A stretch of DNA of 64,000 nucleotides, taken from Microbacterium sp. SA39 (lineage in GTDB: Bacteria; Actinomycetota; Actinomycetes; Actinomycetales; Microbacteriaceae). The position numbers and the translations under genes are program-made. A model generated the notes under the pieces. It was given only the letters and a program-made list of their open reading frames with translations. It was not told the DNA's origin and ran no database searches. Of the stretch, positions 48,548-57,861 are shown in pieces. The stretch covers positions 124,001 through 188,000 of the forward strand of contig NZ_JXRU01000033.1 in NCBI RefSeq assembly GCF_000967865.1. The letters run 5' to 3'. Positions within the stretch are counted from its first letter, which is position 1; every line of letters starts with the position of its first letter.

Positions 48548-48900
48548 GGTGAGAACCGGTCGGATGGGGACGACGCGGATGCCATGAGTATCCGCCTGTG
48601 GCGGCATCCGTTCCAAATCAGATAGCAGATCACCAAGTGGGAGCGCCCATGGGCAGGTCATTTCGACCGATTTCACCCATTCTTCTTGACACTCTGCTCT
48701 CGAGACGTTCGCGCACCCCGCCCCCACCCCGCCGATTCGCCCGTTGCGTTCATCTTCCCGTGCCCCGAGGTTCATCTCAGAGGCCTATCTTGAGTGCGGG
48801 CGCGTGACCGCAGGTAAGCATCTGCCCATTCTTTGTAGACACACGACAAGAACCGAGTAATGTCGACTCTGACATCACTCGACGACGAGAAAGGACGACC
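48548..48900. promoter_or_regulatory. Divergent promoter region with LacI-type operator
   Basis: No gene was seen in these 353 bp. For the plus-strand importer operon TTGTAG (48833-48838) and AGTAAT (48856-48861) are spaced by 17 nt. The palindrome ATGTC-GACTCT-GACAT (48860-48875) overlaps the -10 end and is the likely operator of the LacI protein encoded at the end of that operon. The panC-side promoter was not recognised. Confidence 0.6.
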
Positions 48901-49983
48901 ATGGTCGACATCCGGAAGAAGCGCTGGGCCCTCATCGGGTTCGCGGCAGTCACGGCGATCGCACTGACCGGCTGCGCAGGCGGCACGGAGCCCTCCGGTG
49001 GAGACGAAGAGTCGGGCCCGACCGACGAGGGCGGCACGCTCATCGTCTACACGAACTCGAACAGCGACGGACGCGGCGAGTGGGTCACCGAGAAGGCGGC
49101 CGAGGCCGGCATCGAGATCGAGATCGTCGGGCTCGGCGGCGCCGACCTGACGAACCGCATCATCGCCGAGAAGAACAACCCGGTCGGCGACGTGGTCTTC
49201 GGCCTGAACAACATGTTCTTCGAGCAGCTCAAGGCCGAAGAGGCCATCTCCGCCTACGAGCCCGAGTGGAGCGGCGAGGTCCCCGCCGACGCCGGCGACG
49301 CCGCTGACGGCGTGTACTGGCCGCTGGTCGAGCAGGCCATCGTCACCGTCTACGACGAGAACCGCATCAGCGACCCGGTCTCCGACGAGGAAGAACTCTG
49401 GAGCGACGACGAGTACGCCGGCCGCTTCGAGGTCAACCCGGCTCTCGGCCAGGCCACCCCGCAGCTCGTGCTGGCCAGCATCCTCAGCCGTCATCTCGAC
49501 GAGGACGGCGATCTCGGCGTCAGCGACGAGGGCTGGGAGCTCGTCGAGTCGTACTACGCGAACGGCTCCCCGGCCGTCGAAGGCACCGACCTCTACGCCC
49601 GCATCACCCGTGACGAGATCGACTACGGAGTGCTGCCTTCCAGCGGCATCGAGGCCCGCGACACCGAGTACGCCACCTCGACCGGCATGATCGTGCCCGA
49701 GTACGGCGTGCCCTACGTGACCGAGCAGATCGCCCCGATCGCCGGCACTCCGCGTGAGAAGACGGCCCAGGAGTTCATCGACTGGTTCGGCAGCGCCGAG
49801 GTGCAGGGCGAGTTCGCGGCCGAGTTCAACTCCATGCCCGTGAACGAGGGCGCGGTCGAGCAGGCCAATCCCGAGGTCGTCGACCTGATGGCCGAGCTTC
49901 CGCGGCAGGAGATCGACTTCTCGTTCGTGAGCGAGAACCTCGGCGCCTGGGTCGAGAAGGTCACGCTCGAGTACATCGGCTGA
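48901..49983 (+). CDS. Fbp/AfuA-type ABC substrate-binding lipoprotein
   Basis: A 360-residue lipoprotein with signal peptide and lipobox ALTGC. The fold is class II with TLIVYTNSNSDGRG at strand 1 and VVFGLNNMFFEQL later, as in ferric-iron, thiamine and phosphonate or phosphoester binding proteins. The Tyr pair typical of iron binding near the C-terminus is not evident. It starts a five-gene operon with ATPase, fused permease, LacI regulator and phosphodiesterase. The phosphodiesterase suggests a phosphate-ester or phosphonate cargo rather than iron. Confidence 0.85.
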   Translation: MVDIRKKRWALIGFAAVTAIALTGCAGGTEPSGGDEESGPTDEGGTLIVYTNSNSDGRGEWVTEKAAEAGIEIEIVGLGGADLTNRIIAEKNNPVGDVVFGLNNMFFEQLKAEEAISAYEPEWSGEVPADAGDAADGVYWPLVEQAIVTVYDENRISDPVSDEEELWSDDEYAGRFEVNPALGQATPQLVLASILSRHLDEDGDLGVSDEGWELVESYYANGSPAVEGTDLYARITRDEIDYGVLPSSGIEARDTEYATSTGMIVPEYGVPYVTEQIAPIAGTPREKTAQEFIDWFGSAEVQGEFAAEFNSMPVNEGAVEQANPEVVDLMAELPRQEIDFSFVSENLGAWVEKVTLEYIG

Positions 49984-50012
49984 TCGGGAAGACCGATCGG
50001 GAAGAAGACACC

Positions 50013-51065
50013 ATGATCCGTTTCGAAGACGTCGACGTCGTGTTCGGCGACCATCGTGCGGTCTCGCAGCTGAATCTCGAGATCCAGGAGGGTGAGTTCT
50101 TCACCCTCCTGGGTCCCTCGGGCTGCGGCAAGACCACGGCACTCCGCTCCCTCGCCGGCTTCGTCGAGCCGACGGGGGGTCGCATCCACATCGGCGGGCG
50201 CGACGTCACGGGCGTCCCCAGCGAGAAGCGCGATGTGGGCATGGTGTTCCAGAACTACGCGCTCTTCCCCAGCATGAACGTGCGCGACAACATCGCGTTC
50301 GGCCTCACTGTGCAGAAGGGGTCGGACAAGGTCTCGAAGGCGGATCAGAAGCGGCGGGTCGACGAGATCGCCGACCGCACGGGGCTCGCCTCGTCACAGC
50401 TCGACCGCAACGTGTCGGAGCTGTCGGGCGGACAGCAGCAGCGCGTCGCGATCGCCCGCGCCCTGGTGCTGACCCCGCGCATCCTGCTGCTCGACGAGCC
50501 GCTGTCGAACCTCGACGCGAAGCTGCGCGTGCAGCTGCGCGAACAGCTGAAAGAGCTGCAGCGCGAGGTCGGCGTGACGACGGTCTACGTCACGCACGAC
50601 CAGGAGGAGGCGCTGACCCTCAGCGACCGGATCGCCGTGCTCGACGCGGGAAAGCTGCAGCAGGTCGGCACTCCCGAGGAGATCTACGACCGCAGCGCGA
50701 CGCCCTTCGTCTGCCGGTTCATCGGCGAGAACAACCGGCTCACCCCGGCGATGCTCGTGGCCATCGGCGGCGGCCTCGACACCACGGCCGAGAGCTATGT
50801 GCGTCCCGAGAAGCTGCATCTCGCGCGGCCGGAAGAGCGAAGGGCGGATGCCGGTGCGACGGCATCCGCTCCCACGGCATCCATCGACGGATTCGTGCTC
50901 GACCGCACGTATCACGGCGGCCACAGCGTCTACACGGTGGAGACCGCGGACGCGACGGTGCGCGTGAGCGTGCCGGCCGCGGCGAGCGCCGACCGCTGGG
51001 ATGCCGGAGACGCGGTGCGCGTCGACGTCGATCCGCGCTGGATCCTGCAGTACCCGGCGGCGTGA
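50013..51065 (+). CDS. ABC transporter ATP-binding protein, Fbp/Pot type
   Basis: A 350-residue ATPase. Walker A GPSGCGKTT, Q-loop VFQNYALFP, signature LSGGQQQR, Walker B ILLLDEPLSNLD and switch VYVTHDQEEAL are complete. The C-terminal ~110 residues form a TOBE-type regulatory domain (ESYVRPEKLHLA). It sits 30 bp after the binding-protein gene and two bases before the permease gene. It energises import through the fused permease. Confidence 0.92.
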   Translation: MIRFEDVDVVFGDHRAVSQLNLEIQEGEFFTLLGPSGCGKTTALRSLAGFVEPTGGRIHIGGRDVTGVPSEKRDVGMVFQNYALFPSMNVRDNIAFGLTVQKGSDKVSKADQKRRVDEIADRTGLASSQLDRNVSELSGGQQQRVAIARALVLTPRILLLDEPLSNLDAKLRVQLREQLKELQREVGVTTVYVTHDQEEALTLSDRIAVLDAGKLQQVGTPEEIYDRSATPFVCRFIGENNRLTPAMLVAIGGGLDTTAESYVRPEKLHLARPEERRADAGATASAPTASIDGFVLDRTYHGGHSVYTVETADATVRVSVPAAASADRWDAGDAVRVDVDPRWILQYPAA

Positions 51066-51066
51066 C

Positions 51067-52935
51067 ATGACCGATCCGAAGATGTCCGCCCCGGTCCCGC
51101 CGCCGTCGGCAGGGCTCCCCGGCGAGGCCGGCGTGCTGACCGCCACCACACAGAGCGAGCAGCCGGACAAGAAGAAGCGCACGGCCCCGCGCGGCGGCAT
51201 CCGCTCGATGCTCCGCTCGCCGATGGCCTGGGTGACGGGCGTCGTCGTGATCTGGTTCGCAGTCGCGTTCCTCGTGCTGCCGAACGCGGCGCTGCTGGCT
51301 GCGACCTTCTTCCCCGAGGGGCAGTTCAGCATCCGTGCGGTCGAGAAGCTGCTGGGCAGCGAGCGCGCGCTGAAGACGCTCGGCAACAGCTTCCTGCTCG
51401 CGGTGACGCTGTCGATCACGGTCAACGTGGTCGGGGTGTTCATCGTGCTGGTGACGCAGTACTTCCGCATCCGCGGGGCGAAGATCCTCTGGCTGGGCTA
51501 CGCGACGACGCTGATCTACGGCGGCATCGTGCTGGCCGCCGGGTACAACTTCGTCTACGGCCGCTTCGGGTTCTTCACGAACGTGATGGTCAACTGGTGG
51601 CCCGACATGGACCGCGACTGGTTCTCGGGGTTCTTCGCGGTCGCGTTCGTGATGACGTTCGCGACGACCACGAACCACATGTTGTTCCTGTCGTCGTCGC
51701 TCGGCAAGGTCGACTACGCGTCGATCGAGGCGGCGAAGCTCATGGGGGCGTCGTCGTGGACGATCCTGCGCCGCATCGTGCTGCCGGTCATGAAGCCGAT
51801 GCTGTTCGCCGTCACCGTGCTGACCTTCCTGATCGGTCTCGGCGCGCTGACCGCTCCCCTGGTGCTCGGCGGGCCCGACTTCCAGACCGTCGCGCCGCTC
51901 ATCATCGACCTGTCGCGGAGTCCGATCACGCGGGACATCGCGGCGCTCCTGGCGATCGTGCTGGGGCTCGCGACCATCATCCTGCTGGCGATCATGAACC
52001 GCGCCGAGAAGTCGGGTGTGTACTTCTCGGTCGCGAAGGTCGCGACGCCGATCCAGAAGCAGCCGATCCGCAATGCGTTCGCGAACGTCGTGGTGCACGT
52101 CATCGCATACGTGCTGTGGGTGATCTACCTGATCCCGGTGATCCTCATCGCCGTGTTCTCGTTCGTCGATGCGCGCAGCATCCTCGCCGGCACGATCACG
52201 TTCGAGAGCTTCACGCTCGACAACTATGTGACGGTGTTCAGCAGCCCCGCGGCGCTCAACCCGTTCATCGTGAGTGTCGTCTACAGCGCGCTCGCCTCAC
52301 TGATCGTGGTCGTGGGACTGCTGTTCGTGGCACGGGTGCTGCAGAAGTACCGCAACGTGATCACGAGCGCGATCGAGTACGTGCTGCACATCCCGTGGAT
52401 CCTGCCGATCGTGCTGATCGCCCTCGCGTTCGTGATGGCGTTCGACGAGCCCCAGGCGATCGTGGGCAACATCGTGCTCACCGGCACCCCGGTGCTGCTG
52501 CTGATCGCGTACATCTGCGTGAAGATCCCGTTCACGCTGCGACTGCTGAAGGCCGGCTTCGCGTCGGTCCCCGACTCGCTGGAGGATGCTTCGCGCATTC
52601 TCGGCGCGCGGTCGCTGACGGCCTTCCGCCGGGTGATCATCCCGCTCGTGCTGCCGACCGCCGCCGCGATCACCGCGCTGAACTTCAACAGCCTGCTCGA
52701 CGACTACGACGCGGCGATCTTCCTGTACCAGCCGCTGTACAAGCCGCTGGGCGTGGCGATCCAGGAGAGCACTCGCGGCGAGAACAATCTCGACGCGATG
52801 CCCATCACGTTCGTCTACACGGTGCTGCTGATGATCATCATGGGTGTCACGATGTACCTCGTGTACGGACGAGGATCGGGAACCGGATCGAGTCGGAAGA
52901 GCTCGCAGAAGACGCGGAAGACGCGTTCCGCATGA
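51067..52935 (+). CDS. ABC transporter permease, two fused permease domains (FbpB-like)
   Basis: A 622-residue membrane protein with about twelve helices in two halves. Each half has its own EAA loop: EAAKLMGASSWTILRRIVLP near residue 220 and EDASRILGARSLTAFRRVIIP near 510. The N-terminus is a ~50-residue Pro-rich cytosolic extension. This one-chain layout is typical of FbpB and of some phosphonate and glycerophosphodiester importers. The stop overlaps the LacI start (ATGA). Confidence 0.9.
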   Translation: MTDPKMSAPVPPPSAGLPGEAGVLTATTQSEQPDKKKRTAPRGGIRSMLRSPMAWVTGVVVIWFAVAFLVLPNAALLAATFFPEGQFSIRAVEKLLGSERALKTLGNSFLLAVTLSITVNVVGVFIVLVTQYFRIRGAKILWLGYATTLIYGGIVLAAGYNFVYGRFGFFTNVMVNWWPDMDRDWFSGFFAVAFVMTFATTTNHMLFLSSSLGKVDYASIEAAKLMGASSWTILRRIVLPVMKPMLFAVTVLTFLIGLGALTAPLVLGGPDFQTVAPLIIDLSRSPITRDIAALLAIVLGLATIILLAIMNRAEKSGVYFSVAKVATPIQKQPIRNAFANVVVHVIAYVLWVIYLIPVILIAVFSFVDARSILAGTITFESFTLDNYVTVFSSPAALNPFIVSVVYSALASLIVVVGLLFVARVLQKYRNVITSAIEYVLHIPWILPIVLIALAFVMAFDEPQAIVGNIVLTGTPVLLLIAYICVKIPFTLRLLKAGFASVPDSLEDASRILGARSLTAFRRVIIPLVLPTAAAITALNFNSLLDDYDAAIFLYQPLYKPLGVAIQESTRGENNLDAMPITFVYTVLLMIIMGVTMYLVYGRGSGTGSSRKSSQKTRKTRSA

Positions 52936-53954
52936 GCGCCGACGACCAGGCGACGCCCGCCCTGCGCGTCACGATCGCTGATGTGGCGTCGGCGGCCGGA
53001 GTGTCTCGGGCCACGGCCACGCGCGCGATGAAGGGCGAGGGGCGCTTCGCCGAGGAGACGCGGGAGCGCATCCTCGAGGTCGCCGAACGGCTCGGCTACG
53101 TGCCGAACACGATGGCCGCCGAGCTCGCCGCCGGACGCACCGGCACGGTCGGGCTGATGCTGCGCGATGCGAGCAACCCGGCCTACGGTCTGCTGTTCTC
53201 GCGCCTGCAGGACGAGGCTCACCGCCGCGGACTCGACCTCGTCACCGTGACGATCGGCGCCGATGAGCAGGGCACCAAGCAGGTCGGTGCGCTGCATCGG
53301 CTGCTCGGGATGCGGGTGGCCGGGCTCATCGTGGCGACCGGCGGCATCACCGGCGCGCAGCTCGAGCCGTTCGCCGACCAGGTGCCGATCCTGCGCGCCG
53401 GGCGCGTGGAGGATTCGGCGCGCATCCACACCGCGCACTACGACGACGAGAAGCACGGACGGATGCTGGCCGACCACGTCATCGCGCTGGGGCACCGGCA
53501 CGTGGTCGTCCTGGGCGGAAGTCCCGAGGCGTCGTACCCCGAGCACCTGCGCGCCATGGCGATGCGCGAGACGCTCATCGAGGCCGAGGTCGCGGTGACG
53601 ATGATCTCGGCGGGCGCGCGCCCGGAAGAGGGCGTCGACGAGGCGCTCAAGGCCGTGCGGGCCGGGGCGACCGCGGTGATGTGCGCCTCGGACTACCGGC
53701 AGCTCGCGGTGATGCGGGCCTCACGGGCGCTCGGCCTGCGGGTACCGGACGATCTCAGCGTGACCGGGTGCGACGGCATCCTTCCCGGTGCCGACCTGCT
53801 CGGACTGACCACGGTGCGGATTCCCGTGGAGGCGGTGGCGTCGGCGGCGGTCGAGACCATGCAGCGGCTGCTGACCTCCGGCGAGTCGGATGCCGTGATG
53901 CGCCAGGCCTTCACCGGCGAACTCGTGCCCGGAACGACCGCACGCCCGATCTGA
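52932..53954 (+). CDS. LacI-family regulator of the Fbp-type importer operon
   Basis: A 340-residue LacI protein. HTH VTIADVASAAGVSRATATRAM, hinge AAELAAGRTGTVGLML and core ending SVTGCDGILPGADLLGLTTV. It is encoded inside the operon that it presumably controls, after the permease and before the phosphodiesterase; the ATGTC...GACAT palindrome at 48860-48875 is the likely target. The PTV of classical LacI hinge recognition is replaced by ATA in the recognition helix, so its site should differ from that of the regulator at 19.3-20.3 kb, as observed. Confidence 0.88.
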   Translation: MSADDQATPALRVTIADVASAAGVSRATATRAMKGEGRFAEETRERILEVAERLGYVPNTMAAELAAGRTGTVGLMLRDASNPAYGLLFSRLQDEAHRRGLDLVTVTIGADEQGTKQVGALHRLLGMRVAGLIVATGGITGAQLEPFADQVPILRAGRVEDSARIHTAHYDDEKHGRMLADHVIALGHRHVVVLGGSPEASYPEHLRAMAMRETLIEAEVAVTMISAGARPEEGVDEALKAVRAGATAVMCASDYRQLAVMRASRALGLRVPDDLSVTGCDGILPGADLLGLTTVRIPVEAVASAAVETMQRLLTSGESDAVMRQAFTGELVPGTTARPI

Positions 53955-53985
53955 GCTTTCACCTTTTCGCTCTTCAGGAAGAGAC

Positions 53986-54900
53986 ATGATCCTCACCGAA
54001 CACCCGCGACCGTCGCACGTCTTCGTGCACATCTCCGACACCCACCTGCCGCGCGAGCGTTCGCCGCTCTACGGCAGCGGAGCGGATGCCGATGCGAACC
54101 TCGAACTGATGCTGTCGCGGCTGGTCGACTCGGGCATCCGTCCGGATGCGCTGCTGCTGACCGGAGACATGGCCGACCGGGGCGATGCGTCGGCGTACGT
54201 GCGGCTGCGTGTGCTGATCGGGCCGGCGGCGGAAGCTCTCGGGTGCGAGGTGGTGTGGGCCGCCGGCAATCACGACGACCGCGGCGCGATGCGGGCGGAG
54301 CTGGGGCTGGGACCGGCGGTTTCCGGTACCGAGGGTGCCGACGCCTCGGCGGCGGACCCGATCACGGAGGTGCGGTGGTTCGGAGGGATGCGCGTCATCG
54401 TCGTGGATTCGACGGTGCCGGGCGCGCACTGGGGGGAGGTGCCGTCGTCGCAGCTGTCATGGCTGGAGGGGGAGCTGTCGACGGCGGCACCGGAGGGCAC
54501 CCTGCTGCTGATGCATCACCCGCCGCTGCCGACGGTGCTCGACCTGGCCGTCACGGTCGAGCTGCGCGGCCAGGGCCCGCTCGCGCAGGTGCTGCGCGGG
54601 TCCGACGTGCGCGGCATCCTTTCGGGACACGTGCATCACCCGTCGTTCGGGACGTTCGCGGGTGTGCCGGTGGCTGTGGCGTCATCGAGCGCGTACGGAC
54701 AGGATCTCGCGCAGCCCGTCGGCGCCACCCGAGGGCAGGATGCCGCGCAGGGCTACAACCTCGTGCACGTCTACGACGACACGATCGTGCACTCCGCGGT
54801 GTCGCTCGCGGCCGGTCCGGATGTCGGGGAGCCCGTGGCGGCCGACGAGGTGCTGCGGCGCATCGAGCGGCGCGGGGTCGGCTGGCGCGAGCGGGTCTGA
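53986..54900 (+). CDS. Class III cyclic-nucleotide/glycerophosphodiester-type phosphodiesterase
   Basis: A 304-residue calcineurin-type enzyme. Metal motifs are HISDTHLP, LTGDMADRG, AGNHDDRG, MHHPPLP and GHVHHPSFG, the order of CpdA/GpdQ enzymes. There is no signal peptide, so it acts in the cytosol. GGAAGAG precedes the ATG. It ends the importer operon, so it probably cleaves the imported phosphodiester; a role in cAMP turnover is the main alternative. A 14-bp tandem repeat begins at its stop codon. Confidence 0.87.
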   Translation: MILTEHPRPSHVFVHISDTHLPRERSPLYGSGADADANLELMLSRLVDSGIRPDALLLTGDMADRGDASAYVRLRVLIGPAAEALGCEVVWAAGNHDDRGAMRAELGLGPAVSGTEGADASAADPITEVRWFGGMRVIVVDSTVPGAHWGEVPSSQLSWLEGELSTAAPEGTLLLMHHPPLPTVLDLAVTVELRGQGPLAQVLRGSDVRGILSGHVHHPSFGTFAGVPVAVASSSAYGQDLAQPVGATRGQDAAQGYNLVHVYDDTIVHSAVSLAAGPDVGEPVAADEVLRRIERRGVGWRERV

Positions 54901-54952: not shown

Positions 54953-56275
54953 TCAGCGCACGAGCGAGGGCCGCTTGCTGTCGAACTCCCAGTCGGGCAC
55001 CAGGTACTGCATCCCGACCGCATCGTCCCGCGCGCCGAGTCCGTGCTCGACGTAGAGCTCATGCGCCTCGGCGAGCCGCGCGCGATCGAGCGTCACGCCG
55101 AGCCCAGGCCGGTCGGGCACCTCCACGGCGCCGTCGCGGATCTGCGGCGCGTTCACCGTCAGCTGCTGACCGTCCTGCCAGATCCAGTGCGTGTCGAGCG
55201 CCGTGATCTCGCCGGGCGCCGCTGCCCCCACCTGCGTGAACATCGCGAGCGAGATGTCGAAGTGGTTGTTCGAGTGCGACCCCCACGTGAGATCGAAGTC
55301 CTGGCACAGCTGCGCGACCCGCACCGAACCCGCCATCGTCCAGAAGTGCGGATCCGCGAGCGGGATGTCGACGGCATCCGATCGAATGGCATGCGCCAGC
55401 TCACGCCAGTCGGTCGCGATCATGTTCGTCGCCGTGCGCAGCCCGGTGCGTCGACGGAACTCCGCCATCACCTCGCGACCGGAGAAGCGGCCCTCGGCAC
55501 CGCACGGGTCCTCGGCGTACGCGAGCACATCGCGGAGGCGACGGCCGATGCGCACGGCATCCTCCAGCAGCCACGCCCCGTTCGGGTCGAGCGTGATCCG
55601 CGCCTCGGGGAAGCGCTGCGCGAGCGCGGTGACGACGTCGGCCTCGGTGTCGGCGTCGAGGACGCCGCCTTTGAGCTTGAAGTCGGAGAATCCGTACCGG
55701 GCCTGCGCGGCTTCGGCGAGGCGCACGACGCCCTCCGCTGTCATCGCCTCCTCCCGCCGCACGCTCTCCCACGCGTCACCGCTCTCGCGCAGGTACGGAA
55801 GATCGGTGCGGTCCGCGTCGCCGATGAAGAACAGATACCCCAGCATTGGCACGCTCTCACGCTGCTGACCGTCACCGAGCAGCTCCGCGACGGGCACGCC
55901 GAGGTGCTGGGCGTGCAGATCGAGGAGCGCCGACTCGATGCCGGTGACGGCATGCACGGTCGTGCGCAGATCGAACGTCTGCAGCCCGCGCCCTGCGGCG
56001 TCGCGATCGGCGAAGCGCGTCGCGATGGACCGCAGCAGCGAACGGTACCGACCGACCGGCTCATCCCGGAGCAGCTCGCCGGCGTCGGCGATCGTCGTGC
56101 GGATCGACTCGCCGCCGGGAACCTCGCCGAGCCCCTCGCGTCCGTCCGAATCGGTCGCGACGACGATGTTCCGGGTGAAGAACGGCCCGTGCGCGCCGGA
56201 GAGGTTCAGCAGCATCGAGTCGTGCCCGGCGACCGGGACGACCTCGATCTTCTCGATCGTGGGGACGGCGGTCAT
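54953..56275 (-). CDS. gudD: Glucarate dehydratase
   Basis: A 440-residue enolase-superfamily enzyme that converts D-glucarate to 5-dehydro-4-deoxy-glucarate. KLKGG gives the catalytic lysine pair, LDPNGAW and YAEDPCG the metal ligands, TNMIATDW the conserved Asn and [11 protein letters not shown] the catalytic histidine. ITALDTHW supplies the partner Asp. The start overlaps the stop of the dehydrogenase gene (ATGA). It is the last gene of the glucarate operon behind kdgD. Confidence 0.93.
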
Positions 56276-57861
56276 GCCGATGCCTCACGCCGCCCGTCGA
56301 CGAGACGCGGCAGGTGCCAGGGGTTGGCCTCACGCAGCGCCTCGGGCAGCAGCTCGTCGGGGATGTTCTGGTACGCGACCGGGCGCAGGAAGCGGTCGAT
56401 CGCGAGGGTCCCGACGCTGGTCGAGCGCGAATCGCTCGTGGCCGGGAAGGGACCGCCGTGCACCATCGCATGCCCGACCTCGACCCCGGTGGGCCAGCCG
56501 CCCGCGAGGATGCGCCCGACCTTGTGCTCCAGCACGGGCAGCAGGGCCGATGCGAGCTCGTGGTCGCCCGCGCCGAGCTGCAGCGTGGCCGTCAACTGAC
56601 CCTCCAGCCGCGCAGCGGCCTCGACCAGCTCGGTGACATCGCCGTAGCGCACCACGAGCGACGCGGCACCGAAGATCTCCTCCTGCAGCACCTCGTCCTC
56701 CTCGAAGGACGTGACGTCTGCGGCGTGGATGACCGGCGCGGGAGCGTGCGGCCCCTCGCCGTCCGCCCCCTTCGCGAGCACCTCGGCGTGGGCATCCCTC
56801 GTCGCGACGCCCTCGCGCCACGCGCCGGCGATGCTCGGCGAGAGCATGGTCTGCCCGGTGGCCGCGCGAAGGACATCCGAGACGGCCCGCAGGAACGCCT
56901 CACCCTGCTCGCCGCGCGGGACGAAGACGACACCGGGCTGCGTGCACAGCTGTCCGCTCGACCCGGTCACGCTCTGCACGTAGCCTGCGGCGAGCGCCGC
57001 CACGTCGCCGTCCAGCGCGCCCGGCAGGATGAACACCGGGTTCACCGAGCTCATCTCGGCGTACACGGGGATCGGCACCGGCCGCTCCTGCGCCGTGCGC
57101 ACGAGCGCCAGACCGCCGGCGCGGGATCCCGTGAATCCGACGGCGTGGATGCCGGGATCGGCGACGAGCGCCTGACCGACGCTGCGCCCGGGGCCGAAGA
57201 TGTGCGAGAACACCCCGGGGTGCAGACCGTGCGCGGCGATGGCGCGGGCGATCGCCCCGGCGACGAGCTCGCTCGTTCCAGGATGCGAGCTGTGCGCCTT
57301 GAAGACAACAGGGCAGCCGGCGGCGAGGGCTGATGCCGTGTCTCCCCCGGCCGTCGAGAACGCCAGCGGGAAGTTGGACGCACCGAACACGGCGACCGGT
57401 CCGAGCGGGATCTTGCGCTGGCGGATGTCGACGCGCGGCAGCGGCGAACGTTCAGGCTGCGCGGGATCGATCCGCACACCCCGGTGCTCGCCGGCACGCA
57501 CGACCGCCGCGAACAGCCGCAGCTGTCCAGTGGTCCGCGCCCGCTCGCCGAGAAGGCGCGCCTGCGGCAGCCCGGTCTCCTGCATCCCCCGCTCGATCAG
57601 CGCATCGCCGATCGCCTCGATCTCGTCGGCGATCGAGTCGAGGAATGCGGCGTGGGCCTCGGGCTCCAGGCGCGAGAAGGAGGTGAAGGCCTCGGCCGCG
57701 GCCGCCGTCGCCTCACGGAGCTGCTCTACGTCGATCTGCGAGTACGGCGGATCGAGCTGCTCGCCGGTGTCGGGCGCGATGGCGTGCAGCGGTGCTCCGG
57801 TGCCCGGCACGGAACGCCCGGCGATCGAAGAATGGCCGGTGAGGACGGCGGTGGTGGTCAT
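56272..57861 (-). CDS. 2-oxoglutarate semialdehyde (2,5-dioxopentanoate) dehydrogenase
   Basis: A 529-residue NADP-type aldehyde dehydrogenase. Catalytic Cys lies in [11 protein letters not shown] and the general base in YAEMSSVNP; coenzyme-binding [12 protein letters not shown] and FTGSRAGG are in place. The length is that of the KGSADH type III branch. It completes conversion of glucarate to 2-oxoglutarate and lies between kdgD and gudD. Confidence 0.92.

What the first reader, a model, noticed from the sequence alone, without database searches (positions are those of the whole stretch)
48860..54900. Self-regulated importer coupled to a cytosolic phosphodiesterase
An Fbp-type importer, its LacI regulator and a GpdQ/CpdA-like enzyme form one operon with an ATGTC-N6-GACAT site at the promoter. 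This predicts uptake of an intact phosphodiester followed by internal cleavage. LacI control suggests that the effector is a sugar or glycerol phosphate compound.
Basis: partly seen in the sequence, partly recalled or inferred. Interest (0 to 1): 0.52.

Follow-up and report, generated by a model that had tools for sequence, protein, structure and literature searches.

The report
Phosphate-starvation importer paired with phosphodiesterase
A five-gene bacterial operon looks like a phosphorus-scavenging system that takes up a small phosphodiester (most likely a glycerol phosphodiester) whole and cuts it inside the cell, with a phosphate-starvation type DNA box at its promoter and a cutting enzyme that is replaced by unrelated ones in its relatives.

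Summary
The operon is real: lipoprotein SBP, ATPase, fused double permease, LacI regulator and Rv0805-family metallophosphodiesterase (48901-54900, +). The five-gene order recurs in 33 of 74 compared operons.

Relatives of the same transporter carry an unrelated GDPD-family gene instead (17 of 74) or both enzymes (2 of 74); one Corynebacterium locus has an EEP-family gene. GDPD points to glycerophosphodiesters. Eighteen operons with readable flank show none of these.

New: a PHO-box-like repeat GTTCAYC-N15-GTTCAYC upstream in 30 of 33 relatives, at most 1 of 33 at any other spacing; pstS of the same genome has a matching 11-bp repeat. This suggests phosphate-starvation control.

Correction: ATGTC-N6-GACAT overlaps the -10; the likelier LacI operator is TGCGGnCGCGnGACCGCA, exact once in the genome, in 33 of 33 upstream regions.

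The SBP lacks the ferric tyrosine pair and misses the aminoethylphosphonate and thiamine cut-offs. The ligand is inferred; cyclic nucleotides stay possible, since the enzyme keeps most cAMP-contact residues of Rv0805.

The parts
48748..48776 (+). PHO-box-like direct repeat GTTCATC-N15-GTTCATC (22-bp period)
   Evidence: exact once in the genome, control 0; 30 of 33 upstream regions at most 1 mismatch
48790..48795 (+). conserved TTGAGT before block A, possible -35 of an upstream promoter
   Evidence: TTGRGTGCG in 26 of 33; promoter role is inference
48795..48812 (+). block A, likely LacI operator TGCGGGCGCGTGACCGCA
   Evidence: exact once in the genome; 33 of 33 relatives; goes with the LacI recognition helix
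48833..48849 (+). block B, TTGT-N9-ACAA; its start is a possible -35
   Evidence: 33 of 33 upstream regions; binder unknown
48858..48863 (+). putative -10 TAATGT (pattern TAnnnT in relatives)
   Evidence: upstream alignment; 19-bp spacing to the possible -35 is long
   Evidence: 3 sites in the genome; related element at this place in 27 of 33
48901..49983 (+). lipoprotein substrate-binding protein, Fbp/AfuA/PhnS group
   Evidence: Pfam SBP_bac_8, NCBIfam below cut-offs, model and fold matches
50013..51065 (+). ABC ATPase with TOBE_2 domain
   Evidence: Pfam; NCBIfam PhnT2 335.8 bits, cut-off 457.7
51067..52935 (+). fused double permease (622 aa, two BPD_transp_1 stretches)
   Evidence: Pfam, NCBIfam
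52932..53954 (+). LacI-family regulator
   Evidence: Pfam LacI and Peripla_BP_3
53986..54900 (+). Rv0805-family metallophosphodiesterase, no visible signal peptide
   Evidence: phmmer E 2.8e-89; Pfam PF00149; checked metal residues in 37 of 37

Best explanation
A phosphorus-scavenging importer. When phosphate is scarce a PhoP-type activator binds the PHO-box-like repeat and, once the LacI regulator is relieved by an unknown effector, the operon is expressed. The lipoprotein captures a small phosphodiester, most likely a glycerophosphodiester such as those left by phospholipid breakdown. The ABC transporter imports it whole and the cytosolic Rv0805-family enzyme hydrolyses it to a phosphomonoester (for example glycerol 3-phosphate) and an alcohol. 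Shown here: gene content and order, exchange of the enzyme for GDPD-family genes, conserved promoter elements, loss of the iron-ligand tyrosines. Inferred: the ligand, PhoP binding, the LacI operator and effector, and the order of the steps.
For: Five-gene order in 33 of 74 operons. GDPD above Pfam's cut-off in 7 of 7 tested relatives; a GDPD in 17 of 74 operons, GDPD plus PDE in 2, in 13 of 20 operons of the order of Alkalibacterium; chance is near 1% per operon by my estimate from 2-6 GDPD genes in each of 7 genomes. PHO-box-like repeat in 30 of 33 and at pstS next to pstC in the same genome. Catalytic metal residues in 37 of 37 PDEs. T186 on the P5PA phosphate ligand T149. AfuA, VcA0625 and P5PA among the best fold matches.
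Against: 18 of 74 operons show no PDE, GDPD or EEP gene within the range read, besides one cut by its contig end. Ferric-binding proteins tie in fold score (1y4t Z 30.4) and in the profile search (7li0 E 2e-16 against P5PA 2.1e-16). The PDE keeps 6 of 7 checked Rv0805 nucleotide-contact residues. The GDPDs have Gln for the metal Glu in 4 of 19. PhoP binding rests on sequence alone, and the middle 11-bp unit of the repeat is degenerate.
Confidence: 0.62

Rival explanations
1. Importer of 2',3'-cyclic nucleotides or other nucleotide phosphodiesters from RNA breakdown, cut inside by the Rv0805-like enzyme.
For: Rv0805 hydrolyses 3',5'-cAMP, 2',3'-cAMP and bis-p-nitrophenyl phosphate (PMC3776917, passages); the operon enzyme keeps 6 of 7 checked contact residues and the His140 equivalent.
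Against: GDPD-family genes in 19 of 74 operons do not fit cyclic nucleotides (family chemistry recalled).
Confidence: 0.15
2. Importer of sugar phosphodiesters or teichoic-acid fragments, as in the agrocinopine system.
For: LacI regulators often sense sugars (recalled); agrocinopine D is imported through AccA and then cut by AccF (PMC7356202, abstract in a search listing).
Against: No sugar-handling gene is part of the conserved order; the AfuA sugar ligands H205 and D206 fall on S248 and G249.
Confidence: 0.13
3. An aminoethylphosphonate, iron or thiamine importer with a phosphodiesterase nearby for unrelated reasons.
For: The ATPase is nearest to PhnT2 and the SBP weakly to PhnS, SfuA and ThiB; ferric-binding proteins are tied in fold score.
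Against: The SBP scores far below these cut-offs; the FbpA tyrosine pair falls on P246 and S247; the partner gene is a PDE or GDPD in 54 of 74 operons.
Confidence: 0.07

Closest known systems
Ugp system of E. coli (UgpBAEC with the cytosolic GDPD UgpQ; gene roles recalled)
   Same: Phosphate-controlled import of a glycerophosphodiester with internal cleavage; ugp has PHO boxes and a second, carbon-controlled promoter (PMC4415409, passages)
   Different: Fbp-group SBP, fused permease, Rv0805-type enzyme and LacI regulator here
Agrocinopine importer AccA with phosphodiesterase AccF (Agrobacterium)
   Same: Import of an intact phosphodiester and cleavage inside (PMC7356202, abstract in a search listing)
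   Different: Other SBP class and regulator (recalled); no sugar genes in the conserved order here
AfuABC and P5PA importers
   Same: Same SBP fold group, phosphate-ester ligands
   Different: Monoester ligands; AfuA's sugar-binding residues are not kept
GpxB glycerol-phosphate importer
   Same: A phosphonate-family ABC importer that takes glycerol phosphates (PMC12718374, passages)
   Different: Clade D-III SBP and monoester ligands; not among the 32 PDB sequences matched by the SBP profile
PhnSTUV and PhnS2-type aminoethylphosphonate importers
   Same: ATPase best hit PhnT2; weak SBP hits
   Different: No curated cut-off reached by SBP, ATPase or permease among the hits shown; a phosphodiesterase is the partner gene

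Membership tests
Rv0805-type class III phosphodiesterase | homology to Rv0805 and the DxH, GD, GNHD, H, GHxH metal motif | tested here: met
   E 2.8e-89; eight metal-motif positions in 37 of 37; motif described in PMC4320098 (passages)
Rv0805-type class III phosphodiesterase | hydrolysis of phosphodiesters | not testable with these tools
   needs an enzyme assay
Ferric-binding protein FbpA | adjacent tyrosine pair that binds iron (role recalled) | tested here: not met
   in the profile alignment to 7li0 the YY pair falls on P246 and S247
Aminoethylphosphonate SBP (PhnS, PhnS2) | curated NCBIfam score | tested here: not met
   45.7 of 310, 40.5 of 392.75 and 35.2 of 395.3 bits
Thiamine SBP (ThiB) | curated NCBIfam score | tested here: not met
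   TIGR01276 19.9 of 317.15; TIGR01254 44.1 of 93.4 bits
AfuA sugar-phosphate SBP | sugar ligands H205 and D206 | tested here: not met
   aligned positions are S248 and G249 by way of 8x1a and P5PA; motif from PMC4546632 (passages)
Ugp glycerophosphodiester importer | two separate permease proteins UgpA and UgpE (recalled) | tested here: not met
   one fused 622-aa permease with two transport stretches
Ugp glycerophosphodiester importer | UgpB-class SBP | tested here: inconclusive
   none of the 5 NCBIfam hits at E <= 0.001 is a UgpB model, but shared Pfam SBP families prevent a firm call
Pho regulon member (actinobacterial PhoP) | PHO-box direct repeats with an 11-nt unit upstream | tested here: met
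   two units 22 bp apart in 30 of 33; the middle unit is degenerate; GTTCACC motif from PMC4415409
Pho regulon member (actinobacterial PhoP) | PhoP binding and induction at low phosphate | not testable with these tools
   needs a binding or expression assay
LacI-family operator | near-palindrome with a central CG upstream of the regulated operon (recalled) | tested here: met
   block A in 33 of 33; L132 and L135, whose LacI have other recognition helices, show no CG-centred palindrome among the best

The most novel reading that the evidence does not exclude
A separate lineage of ABC importers, present in Actinomycetota and in the order of Alkalibacterium, is a dedicated phosphodiester scavenger that arose apart from Ugp, in which the cytosolic phosphodiesterase is a changeable module drawn from unrelated folds (metallophosphodiesterase, GDPD and perhaps EEP). 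It gives an Rv0805-family enzyme a nutritional role instead of a signalling one, which bears on the unsettled natural substrate of that family.
Probability: 0.5. Interest if true: 0.62.

Novelty: new variant of a known kind. Interest (0 to 1): 0.5.

Why it matters
If true, it adds a route by which Gram-positive bacteria recover phosphorus from phospholipid or similar debris, now masked by annotations such as iron or aminoethylphosphonate transporter. It gives a testable nutritional substrate for enzymes named cAMP phosphodiesterases. The swap of unrelated enzymes in one slot is a useful way to assign substrates to Fbp-type importers that annotation cannot tell apart.

Tried and rejected
ATGTC-N6-GACAT as LacI operator: rejected as first choice. 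It lacks the central CG usual for LacI operators (recalled), its spacing is 5 or 6 among relatives, and it was not found with up to 2 mismatches in L123 and L126, which have the LacI gene and block A. Of the two other genome copies, one lies inside a long ORF and one between listed ORFs, so no regulon was seen. Block C as an RNA hairpin was considered because its ends covary, and dropped because it overlaps the -10-like sequence.

Wider regulon searches: block A with up to 2 mismatches gave 20 hits against 13 for the control, so only the exact site is used. The PHO pattern with up to 1 mismatch gave 7 hits, control 0. I read surroundings for some of these; one is beside a PitA-like gene that is far below its cut-off. 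I draw nothing from them.

The SBP model does not tell ligands apart: phosphate-ester and ferric binders are tied.

Rows dropped: L119, L075 and L121 (gene cut at the contig start) and L094/L114 (short upstream) were left out of the 33 upstream regions; L107-L110, L112-L116, L118-L122, L124, L130 and L134, except L111 and L117, were left out of the 74 operons as repeats of fetched genomes or cut genes (L119, L121 and L134 are the cut ones). L080 was kept among 'none' although its contig ends. My first GD and GDPD patterns were too strict and were replaced. Relatives share ancestry, so 30 of 33 is not 30 independent events. The shuffles were single-base shuffles.

Papers: no paper on this operon was seen in the listings of searches of the held open-access library; that covers that library only.
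Full report
Observation. The five genes are present as described, on one strand and tightly packed: the permease starts 2 bp after the ATPase stop and LacI overlaps the permease by 4 bp. The SBP begins MVDIRKKRWALIGFAAVTAIALTGCAGG, a lipoprotein-type signal with LTGC. Pfam and NCBIfam confirm the general roles. The enzyme is closest among solved structures to Rv0805 (E 2.8e-89) and much less so to 2zo9 (E 2.6e-14). The genome has a second, 47% identical gene on another contig.

Distribution. In 295 genomes of the genus 32 have a close SBP at E <= 1e-30. In 199 genomes of the family 11, the window's included, match at E <= 1e-100, while 109 pass E <= 0.001, most of them as distant SBPs. In 394 genomes of the class 3 pass 1e-40, two of them in the genus. 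The named-genome scan gave 31 loci, mostly Microbacterium, with Arthrobacter, Agrococcus, Auraticoccus, Marisediminicola, Brachybacterium, Corynebacterium and an Alkalibacterium MAG. The spread is patchy.

Operon variants. I compared 74 operons after leaving out repeats. SBP-ATPase-permease-LacI-PDE is in 33; two more have a PDE without LacI. Behind the permease other relatives have a different gene, which Pfam calls GDPD above its cut-off in 7 of 7 tested loci. GDPD without PDE is in 17 operons; GDPD and PDE together are in 2 (Microbacterium oryzae, M. paludicola; names). The Corynebacterium locus has instead an EEP-family gene (PF03372, above cut-off) and a SpoIIE/PP2C-like gene below its cut-off; EEP enzymes are not all phosphodiesterases (recalled), and this is one locus. 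In the order of Alkalibacterium 19 of 295 genomes have a relative at E <= 1e-40. Of 20 operons there 13 have a GDPD on the same strand, three of them upstream of the SBP. None of these enzymes was found in 20 of 74 operons by the two enzyme queries; one is the EEP locus and one is cut by its contig end, which leaves 18 (11 outside that order, 7 in it). That is a real gap in the argument. On the SBP tree the four labels need 13 changes against 33.3 in shuffles, though near-copies inflate that contrast. All 35 PDE-only operons lie in one starred clade of 44 rows with 9 rows labelled none; the two operons with both enzymes form a starred pair that joins three GDPD operons with support 87/93. This suggests that the metallo-enzyme joined and then replaced a GDPD, but the order is not shown: the root is a midpoint and several branches are long.

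Enzyme. The eight checked metal-motif residues are present in 37 of 37 operon PDEs. By pattern the 19 GDPDs keep HR in 19, the metal Glu in 15 (Gln in 4), and ExD and the second His in 17 each. The window PDE begins MILTEHPRPSHVFVHISDTH, with no signal peptide to the eye, so it should be cytosolic. Against a clean specialisation, it keeps 6 of 7 checked nucleotide-contact residues of Rv0805 and the His140 equivalent, while the other gene of the genome differs at all 7 and keeps the His (residues from PMC4320098 passages; numbering by my own count on the alignment).

Binding protein. AlphaFold2 gives a confident core (mean pLDDT 84.7; residues 1-42 low). The best matches on the DALI-like scale are AfuA with glucose 6-phosphate (Z 30.9), VcA0625 (30.5) and P5PA (30.4), but a ferric-binding protein also has 30.4. 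In the profile search 7li0 (ferric) and P5PA tie at about 2e-16. T186, invariant in the 20 aligned SBPs, falls on P5PA T149, a phosphate ligand (PMC8427247 passages). The ring-binding positions differ and the FbpA tyrosine positions hold P246 and S247. It is probably a phosphate-ester binder with its own head-group pocket (inference).

Promoter. Four elements upstream of the SBP are conserved. (i) GTTCAYC-N15-GTTCAYC: 30 of 33 at spacing 22 with at most 1 mismatch, at most 1 of 33 at the other spacings from 9 to 44, 0 for the reversed pattern; exact also in L123 and L126. Exceptions are L069 and L136 (2 mismatches) and L074 (none). In Streptomyces coelicolor the PHO-box motif is GTTCACC and boxes are 11-nt direct repeats (PMC4415409 passages). 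The pstS-like gene of this genome (194.6 bits, cut-off 205) stands before pstC (264.6, cut-off 196.45) and has GTTCACCTCCCGTTCACC upstream. (ii) Block A: 33 of 33, exact once in the genome; in L123 and L126 18 of 20 positions are self-complementary. (iii) Block B, TTGT-N9-ACAA: 33 of 33. Block A has a central CG and goes with the LacI recognition helix SR(A/S)TATRA of the main clade, L123 and L126. LacI proteins with SRSSVSR, SRSTVSR or SDATVSR come with other CG-centred palindromes in L104/L129, L014 (same operon as L045) and L105/L106; in L104 it is not the top-ranked palindrome, and L132 and L135 show none with a central CG among the best. This co-variation is the case for LacI on block A. 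The putative -35 TTGTAG and -10 TAATGT are 19 bp apart, which is long, so the promoter call is tentative.

Mechanism and rivals. Best reading: phosphate-starvation-induced, LacI-gated import of a glycerophosphodiester with internal hydrolysis (0.62). Rivals: cyclic nucleotides (0.15), sugar phosphodiesters or teichoic-acid fragments (0.13), a misread phosphonate, iron or thiamine importer (0.07).

Known systems. It works like Ugp with UgpQ and like the agrocinopine importer. It is not filed as Ugp, because the two-permease feature is not met. No paper on this operon was seen in searches of the held library.

Noticed in passing
L133:12362-13345 and L166-L169: A DUF218 gene (PF02698) follows the GDPD in L133 and in four further operons of that order; role unknown.
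   Followed up: no
L135:8755-9567, L171:8116-8931, L178:2262-3059: A SpoIIE/PP2C-like gene recurs near the same transporter in Corynebacterium and in two operons of the order of Alkalibacterium; Pfam score below cut-off.
   Followed up: partly
window 48833-48849: TTGT-N9-ACAA conserved in 33 of 33 upstream regions; its binding protein is unknown.
   Followed up: partly
L046:4414-5334 (own genome, C38): Second Rv0805-type gene, 47% identical, which differs at all 7 checked nucleotide-contact positions.
   Followed up: partly
window 54953-57861: Convergent neighbours on the minus strand: a glucarate-dehydratase-like gene (765.3 bits, cut-off 828.7) and an aldehyde dehydrogenase; not part of the conserved operon.
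   Followed up: no
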